Below, piece by piece: positions 121 to 32,976 of a stretch of 64,000 bases of DNA. The notes beneath the pieces are model-generated. The model was given only the letters and a program-made list of their open reading frames with translations. It searched no databases and was not told the DNA's origin. Origin of the DNA: Rhodoferax ferrireducens (GTDB lineage Bacteria; Pseudomonadota; Gammaproteobacteria; Burkholderiales; Burkholderiaceae_C); NCBI RefSeq assembly GCF_003347515.1, contig NZ_QEII01000290.1, forward strand, positions 186,001 through 250,000, read 5' to 3'. Positions within the stretch are counted from its first letter, which is position 1. Every line of letters begins with the position of its first letter. The position numbers and the translations under genes are program-made.

Positions 121-254
121 GTTTTTGCCCATTCGCCCCTAAGTATTGTCTGGAAGTCGGGTTAACGTGCTTTTATACGTCAAATACGCCTCTAGCCCAC
201 GTAGATATTGCGTAGATAGCTACTAAATATATAGCGTACAATAATTTGACAGCC

Positions 255-18566: not shown

Positions 18567-20087
18567 TTATTCTTCTTCGTGTAGCAGGCTCAGTCCGATG
18601 GCGCCGCGTCGGCGCAACCAGGGGCTGGGACGATAGCGCGGGTCGCCGTACACGGTTTGCATGTTGAACAGGACTTCCAGCACATTGGTAGGTCCATGTA
18701 GATTGCCCATGGCCAGCGGTCCCATCGGGTAGCCCAGACCCAGGGTCACGGCGGTTTCAAGGTCAGCGGGCGAACAGATATTTTGCTGGCACATGTCGGA
18801 GGCGATGTTGACGATGGTCGCCACCACCCGTTGGGTGACAAAGCCGCCGCTGTCCCGGATGACACTCACGGCCTTGCCGTCACGGGCCATCAGCGCATGG
18901 GCCGCCCGGCGCATGTCGGGCCGGGTCGCAGGATTGGTGGCCAACACGCGCCGCCGGGTGGTGGCATCGTCCACCAGCATGTCTATGCCGAGGGTGCGTG
19001 CCGGGTCGAGCCGTTCGACCACCGCCATGGTGGTGATGTCAAAACCAAGTGGCGCTACCAAGGTGAGGGCCAGCTCGGAGGGGGCGCTGCCGGTCTCGAT
19101 TTTTGCGCCCAGGTTCTTGAGCAATAAAAGCAATTCGGCCCGACGTACTGCGCGGGGTGACACCCACACGGGCGGCATCTCGTCCACCTGTGGCGGCGCC
19201 GGTTCCAGACTGATCTGGGCGACACCGTCCTCATAGCGGTAAAAACCTTCGCCCACTTTTTTGCCAAGCATGCCCCCGGCCAGTCGCTGGGCGGTGATGA
19301 CACTGGGCCGGTAACGCGGCTCTTCATAGTACTGGTGATAAACCGACTCCATCACGGGATGGGACACATCCAGTCCGGTCAGGTCCATCAGTTCAAAGGG
19401 CCCAAGTTTGAAGCCGATCTGGTCTTTCAGAATACGGTCAATGGTGGCGAAATCGGCGATACCTTCACTGACGATGCGCAGCGCCTCGGTGCCATAGCCC
19501 CGACCGGCGTGGTTGACGATGAAGCCGGGCGTATCTTGTGCCTGCACCGGCGTGTGCCCCAATTGCTTCGCGTAAGCCGCCAGGTCGGAGCAGACGCTGG
19601 CACTGGTTTTGAGCCCGGCGATGACTTCCACCACCTTCATCAAGGGGACCGGGTTGAAGAAGTGAAAGCCGGCAAACTGTGCCGGCCGCTTGAGGCGCGC
19701 CGCAATAGCGGTCACTGAAAGCGAGGAGGTATTGGTGGCCAGCACCGTGCTGGGACTGAGCTTGTCTTCGAGCTCGGCGAACAGATTCGTCTTGACCTCC
19801 AGACGCTCAACCACGGCTTCCACGATCAGATCGCAGCCGACCAGCGCCCCGAGCGTGTCCGCGCAATGCAGGCGGGATTTACAGGCACTGACCTGGGCCG
19901 CGTCCAGACGGCCTTTCTCACAGAGCTTGTCCCACTGCAAAAAAACCGTCGCCTGTGCCGCGCGTGTAGCTTCAATCTGCATATCAAACAGAAGCACGGT
20001 GCTGCCCGCCTGAGCGGCAATCTGGGCAATTCCGCGGCCCATGGCACCGGCACCAACGATGCCAACGTTAAGAAAAATGGGTTTCAT
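18567..20087 (-). CDS. 3-hydroxyacyl-CoA dehydrogenase (PaaH/PaaC-like, double C-terminal domain)
   Basis: A 506-residue NAD-dependent dehydrogenase. A Rossmann motif GAGAMG at residues 12-17 lies at the N-terminus, with NTSSLSVTAIA and the substrate region FAGFHFFNPVPLMKVVEV. The 3HCDH C-terminal domain appears twice (GFIVNHAGRGYGTEALRI and GFVTQRVVATIVNIASDM), as in phenylacetate-pathway PaaH/PaaC enzymes. It oxidises 3-hydroxyacyl-CoA to 3-oxoacyl-CoA. The start at ATG 20087 is chosen because the Rossmann motif follows directly; the frame is open 20 codons further upstream. It is upstream of the Crp/Fnr gene on the same strand with 146 bp between. Confidence 0.92.
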   Translation of the reverse strand: MKPIFLNVGIVGAGAMGRGIAQIAAQAGSTVLLFDMQIEATRAAQATVFLQWDKLCEKGRLDAAQVSACKSRLHCADTLGALVGCDLIVEAVVERLEVKTNLFAELEDKLSPSTVLATNTSSLSVTAIAARLKRPAQFAGFHFFNPVPLMKVVEVIAGLKTSASVCSDLAAYAKQLGHTPVQAQDTPGFIVNHAGRGYGTEALRIVSEGIADFATIDRILKDQIGFKLGPFELMDLTGLDVSHPVMESVYHQYYEEPRYRPSVITAQRLAGGMLGKKVGEGFYRYEDGVAQISLEPAPPQVDEMPPVWVSPRAVRRAELLLLLKNLGAKIETGSAPSELALTLVAPLGFDITTMAVVERLDPARTLGIDMLVDDATTRRRVLATNPATRPDMRRAAHALMARDGKAVSVIRDSGGFVTQRVVATIVNIASDMCQQNICSPADLETAVTLGLGYPMGPLAMGNLHGPTNVLEVLFNMQTVYGDPRYRPSPWLRRRGAIGLSLLHEEE

Positions 20088-20205
20088 GCGGAGAATTATG
20101 ACGCGGTACGGCGTTGCGTTTCGTGCCGTCCATTGTGCGAATATCATGGGTGTCCGCGACTGTTTGCTTGCGGGCCAGCAGCTTCAACCCAACCTATTCA
20201 ATGCC

Positions 20206-20865
20206 ATGACTCTCAAACTCTGCGGTTTTGCGGCCAGTAATTACTACAACAAAATCAAACTCCAGTTGCTGGAGAAGGCGGTTGTTTTTGAGGAGGAACT
20301 GGTCTGGACGGGCCAGGCCCACGCCACCTTGATCGACCGATCGCCTATGGGTAAAGTGCCGTTTTTGCAAACCCGAGACGGCCCGATCTCCGAATCAATG
20401 GCCTGCGCCGAGTACATCGAGGCCGTCTACCCCCAGAACAAGCTGCTGCCCGCGGACCCGTATGCCGCAGCCAAGGTGCGCGAGTTGGTTGTCTATATCG
20501 AACTGCATCTGGAACTGGTCGCCCGCCAGCTTTATCCGGAGGCTTTTTTCGGCGGCAAAGTCAGCGACGGCACCAAAGAGCGTGCCCACAAGCTGCTGGT
20601 CCAAGGCATAGCAGCTTTTGCCAAATTGGCCAAGTTTGCGCCCTTCATCGCAGGCCCGCAATTCACGCTGGCAGACTGCGCTGCCATCGTTCACTTGCCC
20701 GTGGTGTCGAGCGCCTGCAAGATCATTTATGGGGAAGATTTGCTGGTCGCGTTGCCGGTGAAAGACTATCTCCGGGCGATGGGGGAACGAGCGACAGTGA
20801 GAACGGTCAATGCGGACCGCAAGACCAATACCGAGATTATGTTGACCACGCGTCCAAAAAAATAA
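20206..20865 (+). CDS. Glutathione S-transferase family protein
   Basis: A 219-residue GST. The N-terminal thioredoxin-like domain starts MTLKLCGFAASNYYNKIKLQLLE and contains SPMGKVPFLQT and the glutathione-binding ISESMACAEYIE. The helical C-terminal domain includes PQFTLADCAAIVHLP. It is divergent from the hydroxyacyl-CoA dehydrogenase gene, with 118 bp between that can hold both promoters. The specific substrate is unknown. ATG 20206 is chosen because the first beta strand begins there; the frame is open further upstream. Confidence 0.85.
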   Translation: MTLKLCGFAASNYYNKIKLQLLEKAVVFEEELVWTGQAHATLIDRSPMGKVPFLQTRDGPISESMACAEYIEAVYPQNKLLPADPYAAAKVRELVVYIELHLELVARQLYPEAFFGGKVSDGTKERAHKLLVQGIAAFAKLAKFAPFIAGPQFTLADCAAIVHLPVVSSACKIIYGEDLLVALPVKDYLRAMGERATVRTVNADRKTNTEIMLTTRPKK

Positions 20866-20877
20866 GGCTGGACCCGT

Positions 20878-21885
20878 CTAGCGACGGACCTGCAAGGCAC
20901 CCGGATTGACGATATTGGTCGGCGTGCCTTTGATGAAGTTGATCACGTTGTCAAACGCGGCACCAAAGTACATCTCATAGCTGTCCTGCTCGACATAGCC
21001 AATGTGCGGCGTGCAAATGCAGTTCTCCAGGCGCAACAGGGCATGGCCTTGCAAAATCGGTTCGGTCTCGAATACGTCGACCGCCGCCATGCCGGGTCGG
21101 CCACGGTTGAGTCCGGCGATCAAGGCGTCGGGCTCGATCAATTCGGAGCGCGACGTGTTCACCAGCAGGGCGGTGGGCTTCATGCGCGCCAGATCATCGA
21201 GCCGGACAATACTGACGGTTTCATCCACCAGCCGGAGATGCAGTGACAGCACATCACATTGCGCAAAAAACTCGTCCCGGCTGGAGGCGGCTTCAAACCC
21301 GTCCAGAAAGGCTTTTTCGCGTGAAGGTGCCCGGCCCCACACCAGCACGCGCATGCCGAAGGCCTTGCCGTAGCCTGCCACCAGCTGGCCTATCCTGCCG
21401 TAGCCCCAGATGCCGAGAGTTTTACCCTTGAGGACAGTCCCCAAGCCAAAATTTGGTGGCATGGAGCCGGCTTTCAGGCCCGATTGCTGCCAAGCGCCAT
21501 GCTTGAGATTGCCGATGTACTGCGGCAGGCGACGCATGGCGGCCATGATCAGTGCCCAGGTGAGCTCTGCCGGCGCCACCGGCGAGCCGGTCCCCTCGGC
21601 CACGGCAATGCCGCGTTCGGTACAGGCGGCCACGTCAACATGCGGGCCAACCCGGCCGGTTTGCACAATGAGCTTGAGCTTGGGCAGTTTCTCGATCAGC
21701 TGGCGTGTTATATGGGTGCGCTCGCGGTTGAGCACAATCACGTCGGCATCTTTCAGTCGGACCGACAACTGGCCCAAGCCCTTGACCGTGTTGGTGTACA
21801 CCTTGGCCTGGTAGGCTTCCAGCGTGGCGGCGCATTCGAGCTTTCGAACCGCGTCCTGGTAATCATCAAGAATCACAATATTCAT
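20878..21885 (-). CDS. D-2-hydroxyacid dehydrogenase family protein
   Basis: A 335-residue NAD-dependent dehydrogenase of the phosphoglycerate/hydroxypyruvate dehydrogenase type. The nucleotide-binding motif GIWGYGRIG is at 158-166. The catalytic triad is visible as Arg246 (NTSRSELI), Glu275 (FETEP) and His294 (CTPHIGY). There is no ACT regulatory domain, so it is the short form and not necessarily SerA. It acts in the cytosol on a 2-hydroxy or 2-oxo acid that the sequence does not specify. It is convergent with the GST gene to its left. Confidence 0.9.
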   Translation of the reverse strand: MNIVILDDYQDAVRKLECAATLEAYQAKVYTNTVKGLGQLSVRLKDADVIVLNRERTHITRQLIEKLPKLKLIVQTGRVGPHVDVAACTERGIAVAEGTGSPVAPAELTWALIMAAMRRLPQYIGNLKHGAWQQSGLKAGSMPPNFGLGTVLKGKTLGIWGYGRIGQLVAGYGKAFGMRVLVWGRAPSREKAFLDGFEAASSRDEFFAQCDVLSLHLRLVDETVSIVRLDDLARMKPTALLVNTSRSELIEPDALIAGLNRGRPGMAAVDVFETEPILQGHALLRLENCICTPHIGYVEQDSYEMYFGAAFDNVINFIKGTPTNIVNPGALQVRR

Positions 21886-21977
21886 AAAGAGTGATTGTGC
21901 CTTGGGCTTACCAGTGATTCTGACGACGGGGCTGTCTTCCTCCCGTTACGGTATGTAAATAGTGCGATTGATCCGGT

Positions 21978-22304
21978 TCAGTGAAGTGCCGCTTCGCGCG
22001 CCGCCAGGCGGTCCAGCTCGGCGCACACATCGGCCATGCGGCCCGAGATCACCATACGCCCCACGTTGGCGGGCGCCTGGCCGGCTTCCAGGATGCGCAC
22101 GACGCGTAGCGGTCTGCATGTTGATGTCTTAGACACAGTATGAAGCTCAGCCCCTGCGCGACGGCTGTTGAGAGCTATTGAATTTATAGCAATTTCGCGA
22201 CCGCGTTTGTCCAGGCGTGAGTGCGATGTGGCGGGCACGAGCCAGCGCCACAAACCCTGCAGGGGGGCCAAAACGCCGGGAACAGCAAATAATGCAGTAC
22301 TCAT
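21978..22304 (-). CDS. Hypothetical protein downstream of lexA, contains interspersed repeat
   Basis: A 108-residue protein (start MSTALFAVPG) that I cannot assign to a family with certainty. The C-terminal third (about VVRILEAGQAPANVGRMVISGRMADVCAELDRL, residues 70-103) looks like a real conserved segment. The middle, about residues 38-55, is encoded by a copy of the interspersed repeat (22143-22194) that reads through in frame. It lies 21 nt after the lexA stop on the same strand and may be cotranscribed. It could be a functional small protein or a decayed one. Confidence 0.5.
   Translation of the reverse strand: MSTALFAVPGVLAPLQGLWRWLVPATSHSRLDKRGREIAINSIALNSRRAGAELHTVSKTSTCRPLRVVRILEAGQAPANVGRMVISGRMADVCAELDRLAAREAALH
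22143..22194 (+). repeat. Interspersed repeat, copy 1 (within the gene downstream of lexA)
   Basis: This roughly 50-bp element runs from AGCTCAGCCCC to AGCTATTGAATTTATAGC and aligns over its whole length with the copies at 23719, 28915 (inverted) and 30375. It is read in frame in the small gene on the opposite strand. Confidence 0.65.
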
Positions 22305-22325
22305 TTGATACCTTTCTATCAATGC

Positions 22326-23000
22326 CTACATCAGCATGGTGTTGCGAATGAGGCCAACCGCCAGACCTTCAATTTCAAACGGTTCCCCGGGCTCAACCAC
22401 AATGGTCTGGTAGTCGGGGTTTTCAGGGTGCAGTTCGATCACATCTTTGTTGCGCCTAAAGCGTTTAACGGTCACTTCATCGCCCAGGCGAGCCACCACA
22501 ATCTGGCCATTTTTGGCTTCTTTGGTGGATTGCACCGCGAGCAAGTCACCGTCCATGATGCCGGCGTCTCGCATGGACATGCCGCGCACCTTGAGCAGGT
22601 AGTCCGGCTTGTGCTGGAACAGGCTGTTCTCCAGGTAATAGGTCTGGTCGATGTGTTCTTGCGCGAGAATGGGGGAGCCTGCTGCGACCCGTCCAATCAG
22701 GGGCAAGGCCAGTTGGGTCATGCCTGGCAGCGTTAGGGAGTATTGCTTGTTACGGGATTCATTGATGGAGCGCAGGGCGTCACTCTTGAGGCGGATGCCA
22801 CGCGAGGTACCACTGACCAGCTCAATCACGCCTTTGCGCGCCAGGGCCTGCAAGTGCTCTTCGGCCGCGTTGGCGGACTTGAATCCCAGTTCGGAAGCGA
22901 TCTCGGCCCGGGTGGGCGGGGCACCGGTGCGGGCAATGGCACTCTGGATGAGGTCCAGAATCTGTTGCTGGCGGGCTGTGAGTTTCGGGCTTTCAAGCAT
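22326..23000 (-). CDS. lexA: SOS repressor LexA
   Basis: A 224-residue LexA. The N-terminal winged helix-turn-helix ([16 protein letters not shown] ... [23 protein letters not shown]) is followed by the self-cleavage region with the Ala107-Gly108 bond (GRVAAGSP). The S24 protease dyad is Ser142 (RGMSMRDAG) and Lys179 (DEVTVKRF). On DNA damage RecA filaments trigger cleavage and derepress the SOS genes. Three SOS-box-like sites lie between it and the divergent asparaginase gene, consistent with autorepression. Confidence 0.97.
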
Positions 23001-23031
23001 GGTGACTCCTTTAAAGTAGGGTAGGGTCTTA

Positions 23032-23083
23032 CTGTCGGTCTATACACACTGTCTTGATATCCAGTAACTGTATTTTTAACCAG
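23032..23083 (-). promoter_or_regulatory. Three tandem SOS-box-like LexA operators
   Basis: Three sites of the form CTGT-N8-(A/C)CA(G/C) follow one another: 23032-23047 (ending ACAC), 23049-23064 (ending CCAG) and 23068-23083 (ending CCAG). The known consensus is CTGT-N8-ACAG, so each site deviates by one base. Spacing is 17 and 19 bp. They lie 32-83 bases upstream of lexA and only 18 bases from the asparaginase GTG start. Confidence 0.7.
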
Positions 23084-23100
23084 TTTTTGAAAGTTTGCAA

Positions 23101-24120
23101 GTGACGTCAACCAACGTGAATGAAAAAGTTGTTGTTTTGGGCACGGGAGGCACGATTGCCGGTACCGCGTCCAATGTTTCCGACAACATTGGGTACACCG
23201 CCGCCCAGGTGGGTGTCGACCAGTTGCTGGGCGCCATTCCCGGTCTGTCAAAGGTCTTGGCAGGCCGCTTGCTGGTGAGCGAGCAAGTTGCCCAAATCGA
23301 CAGCAAGGATATGAGTTTTCCGGTCTGGCAGCAGCTGGCCTTGCGGGTGAACCATTACCTGATGCAAGCGGATGTGCGTGGCGTCGTCATCACCCACGGC
23401 ACCGATACGCTGGAAGAAACCGCTTATTTTTTGCATGCCGTGCTGCCCTCGGCGCTGCTGGCCAGCAAACCGGTGGTGTTGACCTGTGCCATGCGTCCGG
23501 CCTCCAGTGCGGCGCCTGACGGTCCGCAAAACCTGATGGATGCCGTGGCCGTCACCCTAACGCCGGGGGCGTCTGGCGTGGTCGCCGTGTGTGCCGGCAC
23601 CGTTCATGGGGCGGTGGATGTGCAAAAAATCCATACCTACCGGGTTGATGCCTTCAATTCGGGCGACGCGGGCCCCCTGGGTTATATCGAGGAAGGACGC
23701 GTTCGTTTGCTAAGAAATTGGCCTCTAGCCCAGGCGGCTAGTGCGCAAGTAGCTATTGAAAAACTAGCAAAAATGAGTCTCTGGCCGCGCGTGGAGATTG
23801 TGATGAACTACGCTGGCGCGAGTGGCGCCATCGTGGATGCCCTCGTTTCTCATGGGTCCCAGGCTTCGCAAAATGGCGCACAGCATTCGGATGTGGCGCC
23901 CTTGCGTGGACTGGTGGTGGCGGCCACCGGCAATGGCACCGTGCACCGCGACCTTGAAGCGGCCTTGCTCAGGGCGCACGCTGCGGGTGTGACGGTTGTG
24001 CTGGCCACCCGCTGCGCCAGCGGGCGCGTATTGCCCACGCCGGCCAGTGCCTTCCCCGATTCGCGGGGACTTTCGCCCGTGAAGGCGCGAGTGGCATTGA
24101 TGCTCGCGTTGATGCGTTGA
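23101..24120 (+). CDS. L-asparaginase
   Basis: A 339-residue asparaginase from GTG 23101 (GAAAG seven bases upstream). The first catalytic motif GTGGTIAG is at residues 14-21, and the second (HGTDTLEETAYF) has Thr101-Asp102. The usual ending ASAFPDSRGLSP... is present. No signal peptide is visible, so it is likely cytoplasmic despite type II-like motifs. Residues about 207-224 (LAQAASAQVAIEKLAK) are encoded by a copy of the interspersed repeat and may form an extra loop. It is divergent from lexA and the promoter region overlaps the SOS-like boxes. Confidence 0.9.
   Translation: MTSTNVNEKVVVLGTGGTIAGTASNVSDNIGYTAAQVGVDQLLGAIPGLSKVLAGRLLVSEQVAQIDSKDMSFPVWQQLALRVNHYLMQADVRGVVITHGTDTLEETAYFLHAVLPSALLASKPVVLTCAMRPASSAAPDGPQNLMDAVAVTLTPGASGVVAVCAGTVHGAVDVQKIHTYRVDAFNSGDAGPLGYIEEGRVRLLRNWPLAQAASAQVAIEKLAKMSLWPRVEIVMNYAGASGAIVDALVSHGSQASQNGAQHSDVAPLRGLVVAATGNGTVHRDLEAALLRAHAAGVTVVLATRCASGRVLPTPASAFPDSRGLSPVKARVALMLALMR
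23719..23770 (+). repeat. Interspersed repeat, copy 2 (in frame in the asparaginase gene)
   Basis: The element begins GGCCTCTAGCCC and ends GTAGCTATTGAAAAACTAGC. It aligns with the copies at 22143, 28915 (inverted) and 30375. Here it is read as coding sequence without a stop. Confidence 0.7.
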
Positions 24121-24152
24121 TGCCGACCCGCTACGGCCGGTTGCCGCAGTGA

Positions 24153-24932
<780 letters not shown>

Positions 24933-25688
24933 TCAAGAGCCGAACAGGCGACGCACGCGCTCCAGGTCTTCGGGTGTGTCTACCCCGGGGCCGGGCGCAT
25001 GCGCTGCCACGTGAACCGCAATTCGATGACCATGCCACATGGCGCGCAGCTGCTCCAGCGCTTCCGTGATCTCGATGGGGGCTTGCGGCAGGCTTGGAAA
25101 CTGCCGCAAAAACCCCACCCGATAGCCATAGATGCCAATGTGACGCAAGGGCGCCGGGCTGGGCAATGTGCCTGGCTGATCCCGCCAGTAGGGGATCGGC
25201 GCACGAGAGAAATACAGGGCCAGCCCGCGTGCGTCAAGCACGACCTTGACGACATTGGGGTTGGTGAAGTCGACCCAACTGTCAATGGCGTGTGCTGCCG
25301 TGCTCATGCTGGCTTCCGGCCGCTGGGTCAGCAATTGCGCGACCGCGCCCACCAGCGAGGGATCAATCAGGGGTTCGTCACCCTGAACGTTCACCACGAT
25401 TTCCTCGTCACCGAGCCCCAGCAACTGGCAGGCCTCCGCCAGCCGGTCACTGCCGGAAGGGTGGTCGGCACGGGTCAACAAGGCATCAATGCCGTGGGCC
25501 TGACAGGCGCTGATGATCGAGGGACTGTCAGCAGCCACCACCACCCGAACGCGGCCCGAAGCGCCTGTGACCGACATGACCCGCTGGGCCACCCGCACCA
25601 CCATGGGCGCGCCACCGATGTCGGCCAGCGGCTTGTTGGGCAGACGGGTCGAGGCCAGCCGGGCCGGAATGAGAACGGTGAAATTCAA
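24933..25688 (-). CDS. kdsB: 3-deoxy-manno-octulosonate cytidylyltransferase (CMP-KDO synthetase)
   Basis: A 251-residue nucleotidyltransferase with the N-terminal signature [20 protein letters not shown], then [10 protein letters not shown] and the C-terminal [12 protein letters not shown]-like region ([10 protein letters not shown]) followed by [12 protein letters not shown]. It activates KDO with CTP for lipopolysaccharide inner-core synthesis in the cytosol. It overlaps the Trm112-like gene by 4 nt and shares the lipid A/core theme with lpxK. Confidence 0.96.
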
Positions 25689-25867
25689 AGCCCGAGTTCC
25701 TCGTCGGTGAGCGTGCGTGCCTCACTCTCCAGCAGGATGGGGATGCCGTCTCGCACCGGGTAAGCGAGGCGCGCGCTGCGGGAGGTCAACTCCTGTTTTT
25801 CGCGGTCGTATTCGAGAGGTCCTTTGGTGACCGGGCAAACCAGCAGTTCAAGAAGTCGTGTGTCCAT
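25685..25867 (-). CDS. Trm112/YcaR-like small protein
   Basis: A 60-residue Trm112-family protein ([20 protein letters not shown] ... [18 protein letters not shown]). It has only one Cys, whereas zinc-binding relatives have four; related E. coli YcaR also lacks the full set. It sits between lpxK and kdsB, overlapping both (20 nt and 4 nt), a conserved arrangement in beta- and gammaproteobacteria. A direct function is not known to me. Confidence 0.9.
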
Positions 25868-26906
25868 GGGGAGATGATAGCGTTGGGTTCAATCGGGTCG
25901 CCAGCAAAACTGACAGCAAGCCGTCGAGCTTGGCGAGGAAGGCCGGCTCGGGAGTGAAGACCAGGGGCACGGCCAGCGCATCGGCCTGTTGATGCCACAG
26001 CTTGACAGCGTCTTTTTCGGTACAAATCAGGGTGTAGCCCGCGTATTCATTGCGCAACCAGCTATCAAAAGAATAGTGATCCGGCAGCGCGATGGTGCGC
26101 GCCAGCGGCAGACCCTGAGCGTGCAGCATGGCAAAGAAGTCTTCTGGCTTGGCGATGGCCGCCACCGCCAGCAGGGGTCTTGCGCCACCTTGCGCCAGGT
26201 CGGCCAGTCGGACCTGGCTGCCATCGGCCCGCAGCGCGTGTCGGGCCAGTGTGCGTTGGGCGGTGAAACCGCCAAAAGCTGGTTGGGCACCGGTGTGCAG
26301 CACCAGGTCCGCCGCGCGGGGCCAGGGTTCGCGCAACGGACCGGCCGGCAGCAAAAAGCCGTTGCCGATGCCCCGGTCGTCAAAAACGCAGATTTCCAGG
26401 TCGCGCTGCAGACCCAGGTGTTGCAGGCCATCGTCACAGACGATGATTTGCGTATCCGGGTAGGCCGCCAGCAGCGCTCTCGCGGCCTCGATACGGCGGG
26501 CCGCCACAAACACGGGGACGGCGGTGGCGTGCTTGATCAGGGCCGGCTCATCGCCCACGTCCTCAATCGGGCTGTCATCCAGAACTTCGCGGCAGTCTGT
26601 TGCCTGGCGGCCATAGCCGCGCGAAATCACGCCTGCCTGCAGACCACGGGCCTGCAAATGCCGCACCAGCGCCATGACGACCGGCGTCTTGCCGGACCCG
26701 CCCGCCACCACGTTACCGACGACGATCACCAGGGCCGGCACGCGCTGAGTCTTGAACAATCCGGTGCGATACAGGCCACGTCTGAGCGCTGCGAGCGCGC
26801 CAAACAAGAGCGCGACCGGCCACAAAAGCCAAGCCAGCCAGCCCCGCCGGGTCCAGGCGCTGATCAGGATGCGCTGCAACCGGGATTGCTGCAGGGCCCC
26901 CGTCAT
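25848..26906 (-). CDS. lpxK: Tetraacyldisaccharide 4'-kinase
   Basis: A 352-residue lipid A kinase. An N-terminal membrane-associated helix ([18 protein letters not shown], about residues 20-37) precedes the P-loop [12 protein letters not shown] and the LpxK motif [16 protein letters not shown]. It adds the 4'-phosphate to the lipid A precursor at the inner face of the membrane. ATG 26906 is chosen since exbD stops at 26911; a longer frame to 26948 would overlap exbD. Its end overlaps the Trm112-like gene. Confidence 0.96.
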
Positions 26907-26910
26907 GAAT

Positions 26911-27339
26911 TTACTTCGACCCGACCCGGGTTGCGGACTGGGTGGCAAAGGTAATTTGGCTCAGGCCCGATCGGCGGGCGGCTTCCATCACTGTGACCAC
27001 GGCCTGGTGCTTGGCGCTGGCATCGGCGCTGATGATCACCACCGATTCCTTGCCCGCCTTGGCGCCATCCAGCAGCGCTGCGGCAAGGGCATCCACGCTG
27101 CGGCCCGCCACGGATACCTTGTTGATCGCGTAGGCCCCGTCGCTGGTCACGGTGACCAGCACCTCTTTCGGGTAGTCGCGCTGTGCGTCGGCGTCGGCCA
27201 CGGGCAGCGTGAGTTGCAGTTCGGTGAACTTGCTGTAGGTGGTGGACAGCATCAAGAAGATCAGCACCACCAGCAGCACGTCGATGAACGGGATCAGGTT
27301 GATTTCGGGCTCTTCACGCAGCCGGGGACGAAAATTCAT
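26911..27339 (-). CDS. exbD: Biopolymer transport protein ExbD
   Basis: A 142-residue ExbD/TolR-type protein with a short cytoplasmic N-terminus ([20 protein letters not shown]), one transmembrane helix containing the functional Asp of the ExbD/TolR family ([13 protein letters not shown]) and a periplasmic domain. With ExbB it forms the proton-driven motor that energises TonB or Tol. It follows exbB by 22 nt in the same operon. Confidence 0.94.
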
Positions 27340-27361
27340 GCTTGGCCTTCGTGCGGGGTCA

Positions 27362-27991
27362 TCATTTGCGCAGGTTATTCAGGTGACGTACCAGCCGTTC
27401 GGATGCCAGTTCGAGTGTCATCAGGTACTCATCGACCCGTCCCCGAAAGTAGCGCCAGAAAATCAGGGAGGGAATGGCCACGATCAGGCCAAAGGCGGTG
27501 TTGTACAAGGCAATGGAAATGCCGTGCGCCAGCTGCGCCGGGTTGCCCCCGGTGGCGCCGCCGGCTGGCGTCTGCGAACCGAAAATCTCGATCATGCCGA
27601 TGACGGTGCCAAACAGCCCCATGAGTGGCGCGGCCGACGCGATCGTGGCCAGTGCGTTGAGATAACGCTCCAGACGGTGCGCAACCACCCGGCCGGCGCC
27701 CTCCATGGAGGAACGAAGGTCGTCCTCGCTGCAGCGCGGGTCGGTATTGAGGGCCCGAAAACCACTGGCCAAGACCTCGCCCAAGGCAGAGTTTTGCTCC
27801 AGTTGCGTCACTACATCTGGCGCCGGCACGGAAGCGCGCGAAACACTCAACACCTCGTCGAGCAATTTGGGGGGTGCTATCTTGGCGGTCTTGAGGCTGA
27901 CAAAGCGCTCGATGACGAGGGCCAAGGCCAGGATGGAGCAGGCAACCAGTGGCCAGATCGGCCAGCCTGCGGCTTGTATGATTGAAAACAA
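27362..27991 (-). CDS. exbB: Biopolymer transport protein ExbB (MotA/TolQ/ExbB family)
   Basis: A 209-residue inner-membrane proton channel with an N-terminal helix (WPIWPLVACSILALALVIERF), and two later helices around ATIASAAPLMGLFGTVIGMIEIF and GISIALYNTAFGLIVAIPSLIFW, which carry the conserved family signature. The start is taken as TTG 27991, with GGAGA a few bases before; a longer frame reaches 28024. It is first in the exbB-exbD-lpxK-trm112-kdsB run. Confidence 0.93.
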   Translation of the reverse strand: MFSIIQAAGWPIWPLVACSILALALVIERFVSLKTAKIAPPKLLDEVLSVSRASVPAPDVVTQLEQNSALGEVLASGFRALNTDPRCSEDDLRSSMEGAGRVVAHRLERYLNALATIASAAPLMGLFGTVIGMIEIFGSQTPAGGATGGNPAQLAHGISIALYNTAFGLIVAIPSLIFWRYFRGRVDEYLMTLELASERLVRHLNNLRK

Positions 27992-28341
27992 ATGGAATCT
28001 CCGCGCAGATGAAAAGCCGCGCAATTATCGCCCAAGCCTCCGTAATTGCCGAAGCATTGGCGCTGGTTCGTGTCGCATCCTGCAGCGTTACATTTGCTTG
28101 CACTTGACCCCAGATTCTGTGGATAACTTTGTGGGCAAGTGGCTTGCGATGTAATGCAAAGCCACGGCGGGCTTGGCTTATGACAGATTGCTGACAAATT
28201 AGGCAATGAAATATTCAATGAAATCAATGACATATACCATGGGATCAAGCAAGCAGCGGGTTGCTTCGCGTCCAAGCTGGCAGTGGCAACTGCTGTGGAG
28301 AATTCATTCCTTCAATTCCGCCGAAACCCTTGTTGCCATTG
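27992..28341. promoter_or_regulatory. Divergent intergenic region exbB/xseA
   Basis: A 350-bp region without a gene that must hold the promoters for exbB (leftward) and xseA (rightward). A single perfect DnaA-box-like nonamer, TGTGGATAA, is at 28118-28126. No cluster of further boxes, no iterons and no clear hairpin were seen. The stretch 28180-28250 is AT-rich. Confidence 0.5.
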
Positions 28342-29688
28342 ATGTTTGAGCCCCAATCTCCCGTATTGACGCCACGAATCTGGCAAGTTGGGGCGCTGTG
28401 CCGCGCCATTGCTGACGCGCTGGATGCCAGATTTAACCCGGTCGCCGTGCGCGGCGAGATTTCGGGCTTTTCCCGCGCGTCCAGCGGGCATTGCTATTTT
28501 TCCCTGAAGGACGAAAGTGGCCAGATTCGCTGCGCCATGTTTCGCCGTGCCGCTACCTTGCTGGATTTTTCTCCACGCGATGGTGAACTGGTCGAGGTCC
28601 GTGGTCGCTTGGGCGTGTACGAACCCCGCGGTGACCTGCAGCTGATTGTGGAAAGCGTGATCCGGGCCGGGCAGGGTGCGTTGTTTGAACAGTTTCTCAA
28701 GCTCAAGGCCAAACTGGAAGCCGAGGGTCTGTTTGACACCGCCCGCAAACGCCCGCTGCCGATGATGCCGCGTGGCATTGGCGTGGTGACCTCGCTGGGT
28801 GCCGCGGCGCTGCACGATGTGATGACGGCCTTGCAGCGGCGTGTGCCACACATTCCTGTGGTGGTGGCGCCCGCCTCGGTCCAAGGCGGCAACGCGCCGG
28901 CGGAGTTGATCAGGGCGCTATCAAACTTATATCTACTCACGCCCGAGGTACGGGGGCTAGAGCCTGATTTAGCTAAAAAAACAAGAAAAAAGGCCGATGA
29001 TTCTGCCCCGGTCATCGACGTGATTCTGCTGGTGCGGGGCGGCGGCTCGATTGAGGATTTGTGGGCTTTCAACGACGAGCAACTGGCACGCACCATGCTG
29101 CAAAGTCCGGTGCCCATCATCTGTGGTGTGGGGCACGAGACCGACTTCTCCATTGCCGATTTTGTGGCCGACCTGCGGGCCCCAACCCCCACCGCCGCAG
29201 CCGAGCTGGTCGCACAACCGCGCGAAGTCTGGCTAGGCGCCATCGATGGCGCGGCGCGGCGCCTGCAGGACGCGGTGTTGCGGCGCCTCGACCAGCAAAG
29301 TCAGCGTCTTGACTTGACCTCTTCCCGATTGGGCCGACCATCCGCACTGGTCGGCCGGCAACGCCTGCGACTGGCAGCCAGCGCACAGCGACTGCAGTCC
29401 TCGTCACTCCATTTTTTGAAGCAGAGGCAGCAGGATCTGCAACGCCTGCAGAACGCTTTGCCAGACGCGATGCAGCGGACATTAAGCCGCCGGGACGAGC
29501 GGCTGCAGCGAGCGGCGCTGCGCCTGGGCTTGCTGGACCCGACTCTGGTGTTGCAGCGCGGCTATGCCTGGCTGACCAGCGCCGAAGGCAAAACCATTAC
29601 CAGCGTGCGGCAAACCCAAGTTGGTCAACTGGTGCGGGGCAGCCTTGCAGATGGCACGGTTGAATTGACAGTGGTAAAAATCGATTAA
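28342..29688 (+). CDS. xseA: Exodeoxyribonuclease VII large subunit
   Basis: A 448-residue XseA. The N-terminal OB-fold (VAVRGEISGFSRASSGHCYFSLKD) is followed by the catalytic region with GIGVVTSLGAAALHDVMTAL, LLVRGGGSIEDLWAFNDE and GVGHETDFSIADFVADLRAPTPTAAAE, then a long coiled-coil C-terminus that binds the small subunit. It degrades single-stranded DNA. Residues about 192-211 (ALSNLYLLTPEVRGLEPDLA) are encoded by an inverted interspersed repeat in the loop before the LLVRGGGS strand, an in-frame insertion relative to the family. Start at ATG 28342. Confidence 0.95.
   Translation: MFEPQSPVLTPRIWQVGALCRAIADALDARFNPVAVRGEISGFSRASSGHCYFSLKDESGQIRCAMFRRAATLLDFSPRDGELVEVRGRLGVYEPRGDLQLIVESVIRAGQGALFEQFLKLKAKLEAEGLFDTARKRPLPMMPRGIGVVTSLGAAALHDVMTALQRRVPHIPVVVAPASVQGGNAPAELIRALSNLYLLTPEVRGLEPDLAKKTRKKADDSAPVIDVILLVRGGGSIEDLWAFNDEQLARTMLQSPVPIICGVGHETDFSIADFVADLRAPTPTAAAELVAQPREVWLGAIDGAARRLQDAVLRRLDQQSQRLDLTSSRLGRPSALVGRQRLRLAASAQRLQSSSLHFLKQRQQDLQRLQNALPDAMQRTLSRRDERLQRAALRLGLLDPTLVLQRGYAWLTSAEGKTITSVRQTQVGQLVRGSLADGTVELTVVKID
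28915..28974 (-). repeat. Interspersed repeat, copy 3 (inverted, in frame in xseA)
   Basis: On the minus strand the element reads from GGCTCTAGCCCCC through GGGCGTGAGTAGATATAAG to GATAGCGC, aligning with the other three copies. It is read as coding sequence in xseA without disrupting the frame. Confidence 0.7.
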
Positions 29689-29739
29689 GCTAAGTTTCTA
29701 CAATCAAAATTTTTCGTTCAACCAACTCAAGAGGTCATC

Positions 29740-30321
29740 ATGGAACACACCCTGCCCCCCCTGCCGTACGCAATTGACGCCCTGGCGCCGAGCTACTCCC
29801 AGGAAACCCTGGAATACCACCATGGCAAGCACCACAACGCTTATGTCGTCAACCTGAACAACCTGCAAAAAGGCACTGAGTTTGAGAGCATGACGCTGGA
29901 AGAGATCATCAAGAAGTCCAGCGGCGGCATCTACAACAACTCGGCGCAAATCTGGAACCACACGTTCTTCTGGAACTGCATGAAGCCCAGCGGCGGTGGC
30001 GAGCCAAGCGGTGCGCTGGCGGCCGCCATCAATGCCAAGTGGGGCTCTTATGCTGCGTTCAAGGACGCCTTCGTGAAGTCCGCCGTAGGCAACTTCGGTT
30101 CCGGCTGGACCTGGCTGGTGAAGAAGGTGGATGGCTCGGTGGATATCGTCAACATGGGCGCCGCCGGTACACCGCTGACCACGGCCGACAAGGCCCTGCT
30201 GACGGTGGACGTGTGGGAGCACGCTTACTACATCGACTACCGCAATATGCGCCCCAAGTATGTCGAAACCTTCCTTGACAAGCTGGTGAACTGGAGCTTT
30301 GCCGAAGCCAACTTCGCCTGA
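29740..30321 (+). CDS. sodB: Superoxide dismutase [Fe]
   Basis: A 193-residue Fe-type superoxide dismutase. Metal ligands are His27, His74 (NHTFFW), Asp157 and His161 (DVWEHAYYIDYRN). Gln70 in SAQIWNH is the active-site glutamine typical of the iron enzyme. No signal peptide, so cytosolic. AAGAGG lies seven bases upstream of the ATG. The gene is followed by a strong terminator. Confidence 0.97.
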   Translation: MEHTLPPLPYAIDALAPSYSQETLEYHHGKHHNAYVVNLNNLQKGTEFESMTLEEIIKKSSGGIYNNSAQIWNHTFFWNCMKPSGGGEPSGALAAAINAKWGSYAAFKDAFVKSAVGNFGSGWTWLVKKVDGSVDIVNMGAAGTPLTTADKALLTVDVWEHAYYIDYRNMRPKYVETFLDKLVNWSFAEANFA

Positions 30322-30335
30322 GTTTCACCGTCATC

Positions 30336-30366
30336 AAAAAAGCCACCGTGATGCGGTGGCTTTTTT
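30336..30366 (+). terminator. Rho-independent terminator of sodB
   Basis: A 7-bp GC-rich stem (30342-30348 with 30354-30360) and 5-nt loop, flanked by six A on the left and six T on the right, 14 nt after the sodB stop. It could work in both directions. Confidence 0.9.
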
Positions 30367-30374
30367 ATGCCTCA

Positions 30375-30428
30375 TTGGCCTCTGGCGCTTAAGAGTAGGG
30401 CGCATGATGCTATCTATAGGGTAGCATC
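30375..30428 (+). repeat. Interspersed repeat, copy 4 (sodB/DUF192 intergenic)
   Basis: The element starts GGCCTCTGGCGC and ends GATGCTATCTATAGGGTAGC, aligning with the copies at 22143, 23719 and 28915. Its right edge coincides with the stop codon of the DUF192 gene. Confidence 0.65.
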
Positions 30429-30879
30429 ACTTGGTCTCAAACGGTTTCCCGCCAAGCTTGAATCCGGCCTTGATTCCCTTTTTGGCGAACCAGCCCTGGT
30501 TCATTTCCAGCACATAGCGAACCGGCTGCGCGGAACAATGCGAATCGGTGGTCTGTGGTTTCATGTCGGCCAGGTTGACAATGGTGCCGTCGTCCGCCAC
30601 AAAGGCTGCGCTCAAGGGCAGCACCGTGTTTTTCATCCAGAAGCACTGCTGAGCCGCCTGTTCGAATACAAACAACATGCCTTCGGAAGTCGGCATGTCT
30701 TTGCGGAACATGAGTCCGATCGATCGTTGTTCGGGGGTTGCAGCCACTTGCGTGTCTATCAGGTGCATGCCCGCCGACAGCTTGACGCGCTGAAGATCCA
30801 TTTGCGGTGCGTTTTGCGCGTAGCTTGAATGGCCCAGGGTGAGGGCCAATCCGAGAAGTCCAATAGAGATGTGTTTCAT
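30427..30879 (-). CDS. DUF192 family exported protein
   Basis: A 150-residue protein with a signal peptide (KHISIGLLGLALTLGHSSYAQ, cleavage near residue 22) and a complete DUF192 domain: QRSIGLMFRKDMPTSEGMLFVF, CFWMKNTVLPLSAAFV and QPVRYVLEMNQGWFAKKGIKAG. It is periplasmic. The biochemical role of the family is not established to my knowledge. The stop lies at the edge of an interspersed repeat. Confidence 0.9.
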   Translation of the reverse strand: MKHISIGLLGLALTLGHSSYAQNAPQMDLQRVKLSAGMHLIDTQVAATPEQRSIGLMFRKDMPTSEGMLFVFEQAAQQCFWMKNTVLPLSAAFVADDGTIVNLADMKPQTTDSHCSAQPVRYVLEMNQGWFAKKGIKAGFKLGGKPFETK

Positions 30880-30918
30880 AGGTACATTTTGACGTAACTA
30901 TCAAAAAGATTCAGCCAT

Positions 30919-30948
30919 AAAAAATGCCCGCTTCAAGCGGGCATTTTT
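30919..30948 (-). terminator. Terminator of the Ala/Lys-rich protein gene
   Basis: A 9-bp perfect stem (30924-30932 with 30936-30944) with a 3-nt loop and A/T runs on both sides, located 36 nt past the stop at 30985 in the direction of transcription. Confidence 0.9.
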
Positions 30949-30984
30949 CGATCAAAGCGCCAAGAATTAGTTCTTGGCTGCTCT

Positions 30985-31311
30985 TTACTTGGCAGCAGCG
31001 GGGGCTGAAGCAGCGGCCTTCTTGGCGGCAGCTTTTTCAGCTTTAGCAGCTTTGGCAGCAGCAACTTTTTCGGCCTTGGCGGCCTTGGCAGCAGCGGCTT
31101 TTTCAGCTTTTGCAGCCTTGGCGGCAGCCGCTTTTTCGGCTTTGGCGGCCTTGGCATCTACCTTGGCGGGGGCAGCAGCAGACGCGGCGGCAGCGGGGGC
31201 TGCAACAGCAGCGGGTGCAGCAGGTGCTGCAGCTTTGGCAGGTGCCGACGCTTGAGCGAATGCGCCAGCGGCGAAGAGACCAGCAACCAAAACGGCGAGA
31301 AGTTTGTTCAT
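30985..31311 (-). CDS. Exported Ala/Lys-rich repeat protein
   Basis: A 108-residue protein with a signal peptide (MNKLLAVLVAGLFAAGAFAQ, cleaved about residue 19-20), an Ala/Pro-rich stretch to residue 52, four exact or near-exact 11-residue repeats AKAAKAEKAAA at 53-96, and a basic tail. The repeats resemble histone-H1-like or PhaF-like tails, but the signal peptide points to the periplasm. AAGGAAA lies before the start at 31311. Small proteins of this composition are common in this bacterial group; I know of no function. It is divergent from icd. Confidence 0.8.
   Translation of the reverse strand: MNKLLAVLVAGLFAAGAFAQASAPAKAAAPAAPAAVAAPAAAASAAAPAKVDAKAAKAEKAAAAKAAKAEKAAAAKAAKAEKVAAAKAAKAEKAAAKKAAASAPAAAK
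31024..31155 (-). repeat. Four 33-bp tandem repeats in the Ala/Lys-rich gene
   Basis: Four consecutive 33-nt units each encode AKAAKAEKAAA, with one Val replacement in the third. The near identity of the units means copy number may vary between strains. Confidence 0.85.
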
Positions 31312-31526
31312 TTGCAATTTCCTTGAGATATCGGTATTTCGAAACTCCTTCCATGCATTGGAAGGTCTGTCCGTAACGGGGTTGATTTGCCCCGGGTTGA
31401 CAGAAATTGGTAATTATTTGGGACTAAAATTTAAAAGCGTCTTCGAACCAGGCGGAAGCAGCATTTTTGTTTGGTTCCAGCACCCAAAATCGCGCAAATT
31501 GAACCCATTCATGGAGACCTCACTAC

Positions 31527-32780
31527 ATGTACCAGCACATCAAGGTGCCCTCAGAAGGCCAAAAAATTACCGTCAATGCGGACTTTTCACTCAACGTGCC
31601 TGATCAGCCGATCATTCCGTTCATTGAAGGCGATGGCACTGGTCTGGATATCACGCCAGTGATGCTCAAGGTCGTTGATGCGGCTGTGGCCAAGGCATAC
31701 GGTGGCAAGAAGAAAATTCACTGGATGGAAGTCTATGCCGGTGAAAAGTCCACCAATGTGTACGGTCCCGATGTGTGGCTGCCAGAAGAAACCATCAAAG
31801 TCCTGCGCGAGTATGTCGTGTCCATCAAAGGTCCGCTGACCACGCCTGTCGGCGGTGGTATTCGCTCACTCAATGTGGCGCTTCGCCAGGAATTGGACTT
31901 GTATGTTTGCCTGCGACCGATCCAGTACTTTGACGGCGTGCCCAGCCCGGTGAAAGAGCCCCACAAGACGAACATGGTGATCTTCCGTGAAAACTCCGAA
32001 GACATTTATGCCGGTATCGAATTTGAAGCTGAGTCCGACAAGGCCAAGAAGTTGATCAAGTTCCTGCAAGATGAAATGGGTGTCACCAAGATCCGCTTCC
32101 CGAACACATCCGGCATTGGCATCAAGCCAGTTTCGCGCGAAGGCACTGAACGCCTGGTACGCAAGGCACTTCAGTACACGATCGACAATGACAAGCCTAG
32201 CCTGACTATCGTGCACAAGGGCAACATCATGAAGTTCACCGAAGGCGGCTTCCGTGACTGGGCTTACGGTCTGGCTCAAAAGGAGTTTGGCGCCGAGTTG
32301 ATTGATGGCGGCCCCTGGATGAAATTCAAAAATCCAAAAACGGGCAAGGACATCATCGTCAAGGACGTGATTGCCGACGCATTCCTGCAGCAAATTTTGT
32401 TGCGTCCTGCGGAATACAGCGTGATTGCAACGCTCAACCTCAACGGCGACTACGTATCCGACGCGCTGGCGGCTCAAGTGGGTGGCATTGGTATTGCCCC
32501 AGGCGCCAATTTGTCTGACTCCGTAGCCTGTTTTGAAGCAACCCACGGGACGGCGCCCAAATACGCGGGCAAAGATTATGTCAACCCCGGCTCCGAAATC
32601 CTGTCTGCCGAGATGATGCTGCGGCATATGGGCTGGTTTGAGGCAGCGGACCTGATCATCAGCTCGATGAAAAAGTCAATTGACAGCAAGAAAGTTACCT
32701 ATGATTTTGCCCGCTTGATGGATGGCGCGACGCAAGTCAGCTGTTCTGGCTTTGGTCAAGTAATGATCGACAACATGTGA
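31527..32780 (+). CDS. icd: NADP-dependent isocitrate dehydrogenase
   Basis: A 417-residue E. coli-type isocitrate dehydrogenase. It has the phosphate/substrate region [18 protein letters not shown], the Arg-rich [34 protein letters not shown], and the nucleotide site segment [22 protein letters not shown]. It oxidises isocitrate to 2-oxoglutarate in the TCA cycle. The gene is complete, and its 3' end lies right next to an integrase gene. The 215-bp gap upstream holds two short inverted repeats (near 31350 and 31376) and the divergent promoters. Confidence 0.97.
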
Positions 32781-32976
32781 TCCTGTCCCCCGACGTCTCA
32801 TAACGTCCTGTAAGCCCTTGATTTTCCTAGTGAAATTCAAGGGCTTTTGTTTTAGCTCGTCCCATACGTAATCACGAAATCCCTTCATTTGTTAGGGCAA
32901 TCGTAAGGGTAATCCGTAAGGAAATCCTTCAAATTCCTCACTTGTGAGGAACGTAACTTGGACTGGCTAGGACACC
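32700..32976. other. Candidate attachment site region at the icd 3' end
   Basis: Integrases of this type recombine next to their own gene, and icd is a known target of phages and islands in other bacteria. The crossover would lie in the last icd codons or just after. Between the terminator and the integrase, GTAAGGG (32909-32915) and GTAAGGA (32925-32931) repeat directly and might be arm-type binding sites. The core cannot be fixed without the other end of the element. Confidence 0.4.
32812..32850 (+). terminator. Terminator of icd
   Basis: A long inverted repeat: AAGCCCTTGA followed by further paired bases, a short loop, and TCAAGGGCTT ending in a T-rich run. It lies 31 nt after the icd stop. 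If the attachment core is upstream of this hairpin, the terminator itself would come from the element. Confidence 0.85.

What the first reader, a model, noticed from the sequence alone, without database searches (positions are those of the whole stretch)
22143..30428. Short interspersed repeat inserted in frame in three genes
Four copies of a roughly 50-bp element (22143, 23719, inverted 28915, 30375) share the pattern GGC(C)TCTAGCCC ... GCGC ... GTAGCTAT ... TAGC. Three sit inside coding regions (the gene after lexA, asparaginase, xseA) and are translated without a stop, adding about 17-20 residues in what should be surface loops; one marks the end of the DUF192 gene. I associate similar repeats with Comamonadaceae genomes, but how they move and why they keep frames open is unclear.
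Basis: partly seen in the sequence, partly recalled or inferred. Interest (0 to 1): 0.55.

Follow-up and report, generated by a model that had tools for sequence, protein, structure and literature searches.

The report
Genome-wide 67-base motif overwritten in genes
The repeat is mostly not a piece of DNA inserted into genes but a 67-base sequence motif, present in hundreds of copies in many genomes of this bacterial family, that is written over existing genes and gaps, usually without changing their length, and has faded genome-wide in some lineages, much like the DNA-uptake tags of some naturally competent bacteria.

Summary
The repeat is real, but "inserted in frame" is mostly wrong. A pattern with 19 fixed bases has 47 exact copies in the 6.87 Mb genome (0 in the backwards control) and occurs in 49 of 299 family genomes sampled. 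The unit is a gapless 67-base DNA motif of 50-55 bits; its apparent hairpins do not covary. Matrix hits: about 0.7-2.3 per 10 kb in motif-rich species, none in 77-80 kb of two motif-poor ones. At 7 of 11 coding sites with usable motif-free homologues (among them asparaginase, lpxK, trmH) length differs by 0-3 residues: the motif overlays native codons. At 4 (xseA, waaC, an FdhF-like gene, one DUF192-region site) it differs by 5 or more. Informative columns diverge 0.12-0.23 in motif-rich and 0.43-0.53 in motif-poor species, with similar flanks. The genus splits into 19 rich and 17 poor genomes, with 4 changes on a 30-genome tree; genera have dialects. Best reading: an uptake-sequence-like motif kept by molecular drive; main rival: sites of an unknown chromosomal protein. 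The trans-acting factor was not found, and ComP-type pilins do not track the motif.

The parts
172..238 (+). motif copy, no spanning ORF homologue found
   Evidence: 67-column matrix 59.3 bits; 3 mismatches to the 19-base pattern
23705..23771 (+). motif copy inside the asparaginase gene, sense; exact match to the 19-base pattern
   Evidence: 61.7 bits; motif-free orthologues of the same length or 1-3 residues longer
23095..24120 (+). asparaginase gene that carries the motif in place
   Evidence: ORF; solved homologue 3nxk aligned through the region with a 3-residue gap
26014..26080 (+). motif copy inside lpxK, antisense, not in the finding; overlays the conserved LICTEKD stretch
   Evidence: 35.0 bits; 8 of 8 motif-free orthologues with no gap
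25848..26906 (-). lpxK gene
   Evidence: solved homologue 4ehw, 2-residue gap in the region
28914..28980 (-). motif copy inside xseA, antisense; part overlays native ALSNLY, part lies in a loop of varying length
   Evidence: 30.8 bits; 4 of 9 motif-free orthologues the same length, 5 shorter by 11-17 residues
28354..29688 (+). xseA gene
   Evidence: ORF; solved homologue 8txr lacks about 23 residues here
30362..30428 (+). motif copy in the gap between sodB and the DUF192 gene, overlapping two bases of the DUF192 stop codon
   Evidence: 32.8 bits (own matrix), 38.3 bits (multi-genus matrix); copies in the same gap of several relatives
   Evidence: best matrix score -14.3 bits
32977..64000 (.). 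region that looks like an integrative conjugative element (integrase, defence-type genes, F-type Tra genes), without a motif copy
   Evidence: Pfam hits for 10 ORFs; 0 hits in 32801-64000 against 5 in 1-32800

Best explanation
A 67-base double-stranded DNA recognition motif is scattered through the chromosomes of many Comamonadaceae. Copies arise and persist in place, by base changes over existing coding and non-coding DNA, and mostly not by insertion (shown best for asparaginase, lpxK and trmH; supported by one or two homologues each for a phytoene/squalene-synthase-like gene and an esterase). Something trans-acting keeps the copies in shape: where it is lost the whole set fades, and where its taste shifts the set takes on a new dialect (inferred). 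The mechanism I commit to is an uptake-sequence-like molecular drive: a sequence-specific receptor of the natural transformation machinery favours DNA fragments that carry the motif, so recombination keeps restoring and spreading it, even at some cost to the underlying proteins (inferred by analogy with USS/DUS; neither a receptor nor an uptake bias was shown here).
For: Abundance with zero controls. One spacing in all 47 copies although the pattern allowed others. Columns vary independently: pair counts are close to expectation and RNAalifold finds 2 non-covarying pairs at -0.57 kcal/mol. In place over native codons. Constraint on DNA only in motif-rich species: high-information columns diverge .167/.225/.124/.213/.202 (asn/lpxK/xseA/trmH/waaC) against .505/.527/.432/.474/.476 in motif-poor species, with similar flanks. 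Rich/poor split of the genus, no genome between 15 and 63 matches; 4 label changes on the tree against a minimum of 5 in 2000 label shuffles. Dialects of the centre. Fewer copies in coding DNA: 17 of 57 against 1448 of 3000 random positions. None in the ICE-like part of the window; 1 in 60 kb of three low-GC stretches of G010, grouped after the fact. No regional strand bias over 150 copies of G010 (permutation p 0.63). ComEC matched in 36 of 37 rich and 26 of 26 poor genomes.
Against: 67 bases and 50-55 bits is far more than the cores of about 10-12 bases of known uptake sequences, and the density is about ten times lower than in Haemophilus (both recalled). ComEC is present in rich and poor alike. 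ComP_DUS-family pilins were matched in 26 of 26 poor but only 31 of 37 rich genomes; the six misses (G008, G011, G013, G020, G025, G031) are all rich, and G013 is rated 100% complete, so this pilin family is not the receptor. The inner 35 bases lean towards a palindrome, which would suit a dimeric binding protein. Spacing of 150 G010 copies is no more even than random. In genus g159, 8 of 33 listed copies share one 11-base centre, which could mean copying. At 4 of 11 usable coding sites the motif-free form is shorter by 5 or more residues in at least some species.
Confidence: 0.38

Rival explanations
1. The motif is the binding site of an unidentified multimeric chromosomal protein (architecture, segregation, repair or similar). 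Each copy is kept by selection for binding, and the set fades when the protein is lost.
For: Fixed spacing; AT-rich flanks around a GC-rich core; AT/GC pattern most symmetric about core position 17, with a suggestive inner palindrome; no strand bias; retention at the same gene positions across species; whole-set loss in several lineages.
Against: Hundreds of sites would each need selection strong enough to override protein sequence; a common dialect shift of many sites is hard under site-by-site selection. Strand-level dyad symmetry is p 0.03 and 0.025 at centre 17 but p 0.66 and 0.81 when all centres are allowed. No candidate protein was found.
Confidence: 0.3
2. A mobile miniature element (MITE or RPE type) that inserted in frame and was later worn down, or copies itself in some lineages.
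For: High information content; shared centres in g159; longer loops with the motif in xseA, waaC, FdhF-like L196 and G300 asparaginase; two places on a 32 kb Rhodoferax antarcticus plasmid.
Against: 0-3 residues of length difference at 7 of 11 usable coding sites; the outer ends do not mirror each other; no target duplication was noticed in the alignments, though none was searched for systematically; only 1 of 72,556 plasmid records in a one-query search and 9 viral stretches with the strict pattern; none in the ICE-like region.
Confidence: 0.13
3. A structured RNA or hairpin element (REP, terminator or mRNA stability element), possibly moved by a Y1 (REP-associated) transposase.
For: Single copies can be drawn as two hairpins; Y1_Tnp is common in the family (222 of 299 genomes).
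Against: No covariation; both orientations inside genes; motif-rich genomes G199 and G327 are not in the list of Y1_Tnp matches; 9 Rfam matches in 20000-31500, all below their gathering scores.
Confidence: 0.03

Closest known systems
DNA uptake sequences: USS of Pasteurellaceae and DUS of Neisseriaceae
   Same: Many copies in place in coding and non-coding DNA, fewer in coding and newly acquired DNA, spread by molecular drive (passages of PMC7811141 seen); dialects between lineages (recalled; only the title of a paper on DUS dialects was seen, in the reference list)
   Different: 67 bases with a weak centre against cores of about 10-12 bases (recalled); far sparser; no receptor or uptake bias known to me in Comamonadaceae
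Chromosome-organising sites such as matS and SlmA sites
   Same: In-place sites read by one protein, also within genes (recalled)
   Different: Dozens of short sites in those systems (recalled) against hundreds of 67-base sites here; no protein known
Rickettsia palindromic elements (RPE)
   Same: Repeats read through in frame inside protein genes (passages of PMC10969869)
   Different: RPEs are described there as integrated elements of about 150 bp; here most usable coding copies show no insertion
Betaproteobacterial repeat element BRE (Hot et al. 2011, PMC3110155; abstract and section 14 read)
   Same: Repeat in Bordetella, Azoarcus and Comamonadaceae including Rhodoferax and Polaromonas; some copies entirely within genes
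   Different: Full-length Bordetella copies 75-91 bp, mean 69% GC, often in tandem and number-variable; here 67 bases, about 43% GC (my sum of the column frequencies), one length, dispersed. The BRE letters were not available, so a relation could not be tested
REP/RAYT and ERIC-type repeats
   Same: Dispersed short repeats with palindromic parts (recalled)
   Different: No covarying hairpin; no tie to Y1 transposase

Membership tests
USS/DUS uptake sequences | many copies arising in place, without insertion, in coding and non-coding DNA | tested here: met
   7 of 11 usable coding sites with 0-3 residues of difference, best shown for asparaginase, lpxK, trmH
USS/DUS uptake sequences | under-represented in coding and newly acquired DNA | tested here: met
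   17 of 57 against 1448 of 3000 random positions coding; 0 in 31 kb of ICE-like DNA; the low-GC G010 stretches were grouped after seeing the counts
USS/DUS uptake sequences | short core of about 10-12 bases at roughly one per kb (recalled) | tested here: not met
   67 bases, about 0.7-2.3 per 10 kb
USS/DUS uptake sequences | ComP_DUS-type pilin receptor accompanies the motif | tested here: not met
   PF16732 in 31 of 37 rich and 26 of 26 poor genomes; rich and complete G013 has no match
USS/DUS uptake sequences | DNA import machinery (ComEC) accompanies the motif | tested here: inconclusive
   36 of 37 rich and 26 of 26 poor; the miss, G023, is rated 89% complete
USS/DUS uptake sequences | motif DNA is taken up preferentially | not testable with these tools
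   needs an uptake assay
MITE / RPE in-frame insertion | empty sites shorter by the element length at orthologous genes | tested here: not met
   0-3 residues at 7 of 11 usable sites; at xseA, waaC, FdhF-like L196 and G010 44225 the motif-free form is shorter in some or all homologues, by 5-36 residues
MITE / RPE in-frame insertion | terminal inverted repeats or target duplications | tested here: inconclusive
   outer ends do not mirror each other; target duplications were not searched for systematically
REP / structured RNA | covarying hairpin | tested here: not met
REP / RAYT | tied to a Y1 transposase | tested here: not met
   Y1_Tnp in 222 of 299 genomes, the 19-base pattern in 49 of 299; rich G199 and G327 not among the Y1_Tnp matches
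BRE | sequence identity to BRE | not testable with these tools
   letters only in a figure and supplement; GC, length and tandem arrangement differ
Chromosome-organising site (matS type) | bound by a dedicated protein | not testable with these tools
   no candidate identified

The most novel reading that the evidence does not exclude
A so far undescribed trans-acting system in Comamonadaceae, either an uptake receptor of unprecedented specificity or a multimeric chromosomal protein, reads a 67-base motif at several hundred places, overwrites conserved genes with it by concerted evolution, and has been switched off genome-wide several times in one genus.
Probability: 0.5. Interest if true: 0.85.

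Novelty: new variant of a known kind. Interest (0 to 1): 0.72.

Why it matters
If true, a large and common bacterial family carries a self-DNA mark or chromosome code much longer than any uptake sequence I know of, strong enough to bend core enzymes such as LpxK, XseA and a TrmH-family methyltransferase. The natural on/off contrast between sister species makes the search for the factor behind it a tractable comparison. It also warns that in-frame repeats in proteins need not be insertions.

Tried and rejected
Insertion as the general explanation: rejected on same-length motif-free orthologues. Structured RNA: rejected. Y1 transposase as mover: no tie. Loss of ComEC or of ComP_DUS pilins as the cause of motif loss: not supported; the six genomes without a ComP_DUS match are all motif-rich. 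While checking this report I counted those six, which I had first passed over, and lowered the uptake reading from 0.42 to 0.38 and raised the binding-protein rival from 0.27 to 0.30. Strand-level palindrome: a first test by column permutation gave z 4.1 at centre 17; a stricter test that keeps the AT/GC pattern gave p 0.03 and 0.025 at that centre and 0.66 and 0.81 over all centres, so only the symmetry of the AT/GC pattern is claimed. Another dialect in motif-poor genomes: in 77 kb blocks of G010 and G032, 7 of the 8 top repeat hubs each score as the motif; G006 has no hub with more than 4 partners; the 5 G003 hubs looked at are GC-rich similarities, and G003 also has a REP-like repeat. The reversed-sequence control is not a valid control, because reversing both copies keeps the similarity. 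The large gaps between the 150 listed G010 copies are largely an effect of the cap: 33 matrix hits lie in 300 kb sampled from them. Solved-structure search for L034: the printed alignment stops before the motif, uninformative. L037 looked to me, by eye and from memory of its family, as if it had extra residues at the motif; not tested. The 22143 copy: rejected.

Literature: ten searches, all the cap allows. Those aimed at this repeat or family were; some searches sought comparators. Only the listings were seen (0 papers; 15 of 172, 15 of 1,209, 12 of 415 and 8 of 138), and none of the papers listed is about this motif as far as title and start of abstract tell. Most subscription papers and all supplements are outside what I could search.

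Limits: the 19-base pattern fixes 19 of 67 columns, so its counts are minimum counts and its copies look more alike than the whole set. The matrix allows no gaps, so forms with indels would be missed. The rich/poor labels came, whose blocks contain the same three sites; the whole-genome counts confirm them, and one search used other sites and the whole-genome labels. G015, G019 and G026 were left out; G019 counts as rich and G015 as poor. In one search the G031 trmH row (a paralogue) was dropped. For the tree, 5 of 35 labelled genomes (G008, G020, G026, G017, G322) were dropped for too little sequence, and its three proteins include the motif stretches. The random positions came from rich and poor blocks together. 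In one search only places printed were used (59 of those of five genomes). Orthologue alignments are automatic.
Full report
What is there. The window is part of a 6.87 Mb draft genome (G000, contig C290). Its genus is probably Rhodoferax, judging by the company among named matches; I did not test this. The pattern GGCNTCTAGC-N{10,30}-GCGC-N{0,12}-AGCTAT has 47 exact places in this genome (23 forward, 24 reverse, 0 for the pattern read backwards), and all 47 have the same spacing. With that spacing fixed (19 specified bases) it occurs in 49 of 299 sampled genomes of the same family and in 28 of 141 genera, with 0 in the control.

Anatomy. Aligned copies show a unit of 67 bases: an AT-rich left flank (roughly TTTTA..G..AAAT), GGCCTCTAGCCC, a weakly conserved centre, GCGC(A)AG, AGCTAT, an AT-rich stretch and ATAGC. 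The information is 49.7 bits in 126 non-redundant copies that do not meet the fixed pattern, 55.1 bits in 266 copies including those that do, and 0.838 bits x 67 positions in the model. The apparent hairpins are not maintained as pairs: for the candidate pairs tested, the observed number of pairs is close to that expected from independent columns, and RNAalifold finds 2 pairs, none covarying, at -0.57 kcal/mol on 95 sequences. The strongest dependence between columns is within the left A/T tract. The AT/GC pattern is most symmetric about core position 17 and the inner arms lean towards a palindrome, but strand-level symmetry is only suggestive.

Copies in the window. With the matrix there are five: 172 (+), 23705 (+), 26014 (+), 28914 (-) and 30362 (+); ten first-order resamplings of the window gave none even at 5 bits. 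The lpxK and 172 copies were not in the finding.

Density. In blocks of 60 kb or more around xseA, motif-rich species carry 0.78 (own), 1.33 (G024), 1.7 (G032) and 2.25 (G010) hits of at least 14 bits per 10 kb, and G006 and G003 none; shorter blocks of other species range from 0 to 3.55. For G010, 72 hits lie in 540 kb (300 kb chosen as gaps between strong copies, 140 kb around xseA, 100 kb elsewhere), which extrapolates to about 660 per 4.9 Mb. For the own genome, 10 hits lie in 144 kb (window plus L277-L280), which extrapolates to about 480. The reversed-sequence controls gave 0.

Mostly not an insertion. Usable coding sites are those with at least one motif-free homologue (score below 0) that spans the site and is not a low-identity match; there are 11. 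Asparaginase: 4 of 6 motif-free orthologues have no gap, two are longer by 1 and 3 residues; across the family and order most copies have 39-42 residues in the aligned stretch, while G300, which carries a shifted motif, has 57; the solved structure 3nxk aligns through with a 3-residue gap. lpxK: 8 of 8 motif-free orthologues have no gap, and 4ehw differs by 2 residues; the motif runs over the conserved LICTEKD stretch. trmH (L018): of 15 motif-poor orthologues 14 have 38 residues and one 37; of 15 motif-rich ones 14 have 38 and one 50; the solved structure 7qiu is 4 residues shorter across the stretch. A phytoene/squalene-synthase-like gene (own copy 51.9 bits; named by eye) shows 0 against its one motif-free homologue, and an esterase (28.0 bits; named by eye) 0 and 1 against two. 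A weak site in G024 and G013 (17.3 and 15.6 bits) shows no gap in the 12 motif-free orthologues displayed of 14, and G010 23691 (44.3 bits) 1 residue against one. In asparaginase the residues R-N-W-P are written AGA AAT TGG CCT in the 7 motif-bearing genomes of the genus aligned; the six without the motif start with CGN (4) or AAA (2).

Exceptions, told in full. xseA: 4 of 9 motif-free orthologues have the same length and 5 are 11-17 residues shorter, and the solved 8txr lacks about 23 residues there; yet the ALSNLY part of the motif overlays native residues. waaC (L046): 16 motif-rich loops have 31-32 residues, 14 motif-poor ones 18 to 40, and the solved 6dfe is 8 residues shorter. An FdhF-like copy (L196, 74.5 bits; named by eye) lies in a stretch that its one motif-free homologue, 59% identical, lacks by 32-36 residues. 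G010 44225 shows 5 residues against one homologue. Not counted either way: L114, L142 and L152 (homologues of 29-37% identity, varied gaps), L269 (28-34% identity, 2-3 residues) and G019 11230 (14.0 bits, in the variable gene after lexA, varied gaps). Of 307 sites of at least 20 bits, some of them the same place fetched twice, 47 had spanning homologues.

Constraint on DNA. Within the genus I compared columns of high information (at least 1 bit, 22 columns) in motif-rich and motif-poor species. Rich against poor mean pairwise difference: asparaginase .167/.505, lpxK .225/.527, xseA .124/.432, trmH .213/.474, waaC .202/.476. Third codon positions of the flanks are .45-.53 in rich and .48-.57 in poor, and first and second positions differ by at most .03 between the groups. 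Low-information columns in rich species are .303.221.477.296 and .504, so in lpxK they are no more variable than the informative ones. The species are not all alike: some motif-rich genomes score low at a given site (trmH of G019 6.5 bits; waaC of G019, G022 and G004 9.5-12.3 bits), and motif-poor G015 scores 11.2 at trmH. All sites were chosen because the own copy has the motif. The motif is thus kept at the DNA level, and in some lineages only.

On and off. Other genera mix too: in g113 G322 has 1 while G147 and G248 reach the cap; in g152 G276 has 1 and G346 0 while G186 reaches it. On a tree of 30 genomes from three proteins the label needs 4 changes, against a mean of 10.3 and a minimum of 5 in 2000 shuffles; some nodes are weakly supported. 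Since related genera are rich, loss is the likelier direction (inference).

Dialects. Core positions 10-30 differ by lineage: own CC.CGT.gAataTGCGCAAGc, g159 GCTtATgtATCAAGCGCtAGC, g160 GCTTgcc.GtcAAGCGC.AGC, g97 GCtTGCC.g.CAAGCGCtaGC (47, 33, 13 and 13 copies, the last three from the places printed). In g159 8 of 33 share one 11-base centre, which may mean copying or a tight dialect.

Where it is and is not. By a conservative test 17 of 57 copies in 420 kb of rich blocks are coding, against 1448 of 3000 random positions. The right half of the window looks like an integrative conjugative element (integrase at 32977; TraG, TraH, TraN, TraC, TrbI and DsbC-like genes) and has no copy, against 5 in the left half. 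In G010 three low-GC stretches have 1 copy in 60 kb, and two of them hold polysaccharide genes; this grouping was made after seeing the counts. One plasmid record of 72,556 has the element, in two places, in a search with one query and limited sensitivity; nine stretches of viral contigs have the fixed pattern. In G010, 150 listed copies are 78 forward and 72 reverse with no regional strand bias, and their spacing (CV 1.13) is no more even than random (0.99, sd 0.08).

How it may work. The facts suggest a homogenising process that acts in trans on the whole set: dialects, loss of the set as a whole, in-place emergence, and fewer copies in coding and foreign DNA. The known process with these properties is uptake bias with recombination; passages of PMC7811141 describe under-representation in coding and newly acquired DNA and modelling of molecular drive. 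What does not fit is the length, the information content and the low density (known values recalled), and the competence genes: ComEC is in 36 of 37 rich and 26 of 26 poor genomes, and ComP_DUS-family pilins are in 26 of 26 poor but 31 of 37 rich ones, so that pilin family is not the receptor. A chromosomal binding protein is the main rival. I give 0.38 and 0.30.

Known or not. Six literature searches aimed at the repeat or family (listings only, capped) show no paper on such a motif. The closest described repeat found is BRE (PMC3110155; abstract and section 14 read): also in Comamonadaceae and sometimes inside genes, but 75-91 bp, 69% GC and often in tandem. Its letters were not available, so a relation is not excluded.

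Noticed in passing
window 32977-64000: Region that looks like an integrative conjugative element: tyrosine integrase, GAP1-N1 and ABC-3C (CTD7) defence-type genes, a DUF3732 gene, F-type Tra genes; no tRNA found by ARAGORN in 32000-34000.
   Followed up: partly
window 30985-31317 (-): Small alanine/lysine-rich ORF (110 aa) with KAEKAAAAKAA-type repeats encoded by 33-base units and what looks like a signal peptide.
   Followed up: no
L274:15481-17315, L275:19286-19351, L276:1017-1131 (G003): Motif-poor G003 carries a different, REP-like interspersed repeat with GGGTCAGA...TCTGACCC arms.
   Followed up: no
L381:2390-2456 and 4837-4903: Two very strong motif copies (82.5 and 79.2 bits) in what looks like a his operon, one at the start of a hisH-like frame, one overlapping the end of a hisF-like frame (gene names by eye).
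   Followed up: no
L223 (G300): Asparaginase of another genus carries a motif (40.7 bits) at a shifted position in a loop 15 residues longer than in the own gene.
   Followed up: partly
G028:C68:19749-19814: A very strong motif copy (62.3 bits) in a motif-poor genome, perhaps recently acquired or contamination.
   Followed up: no
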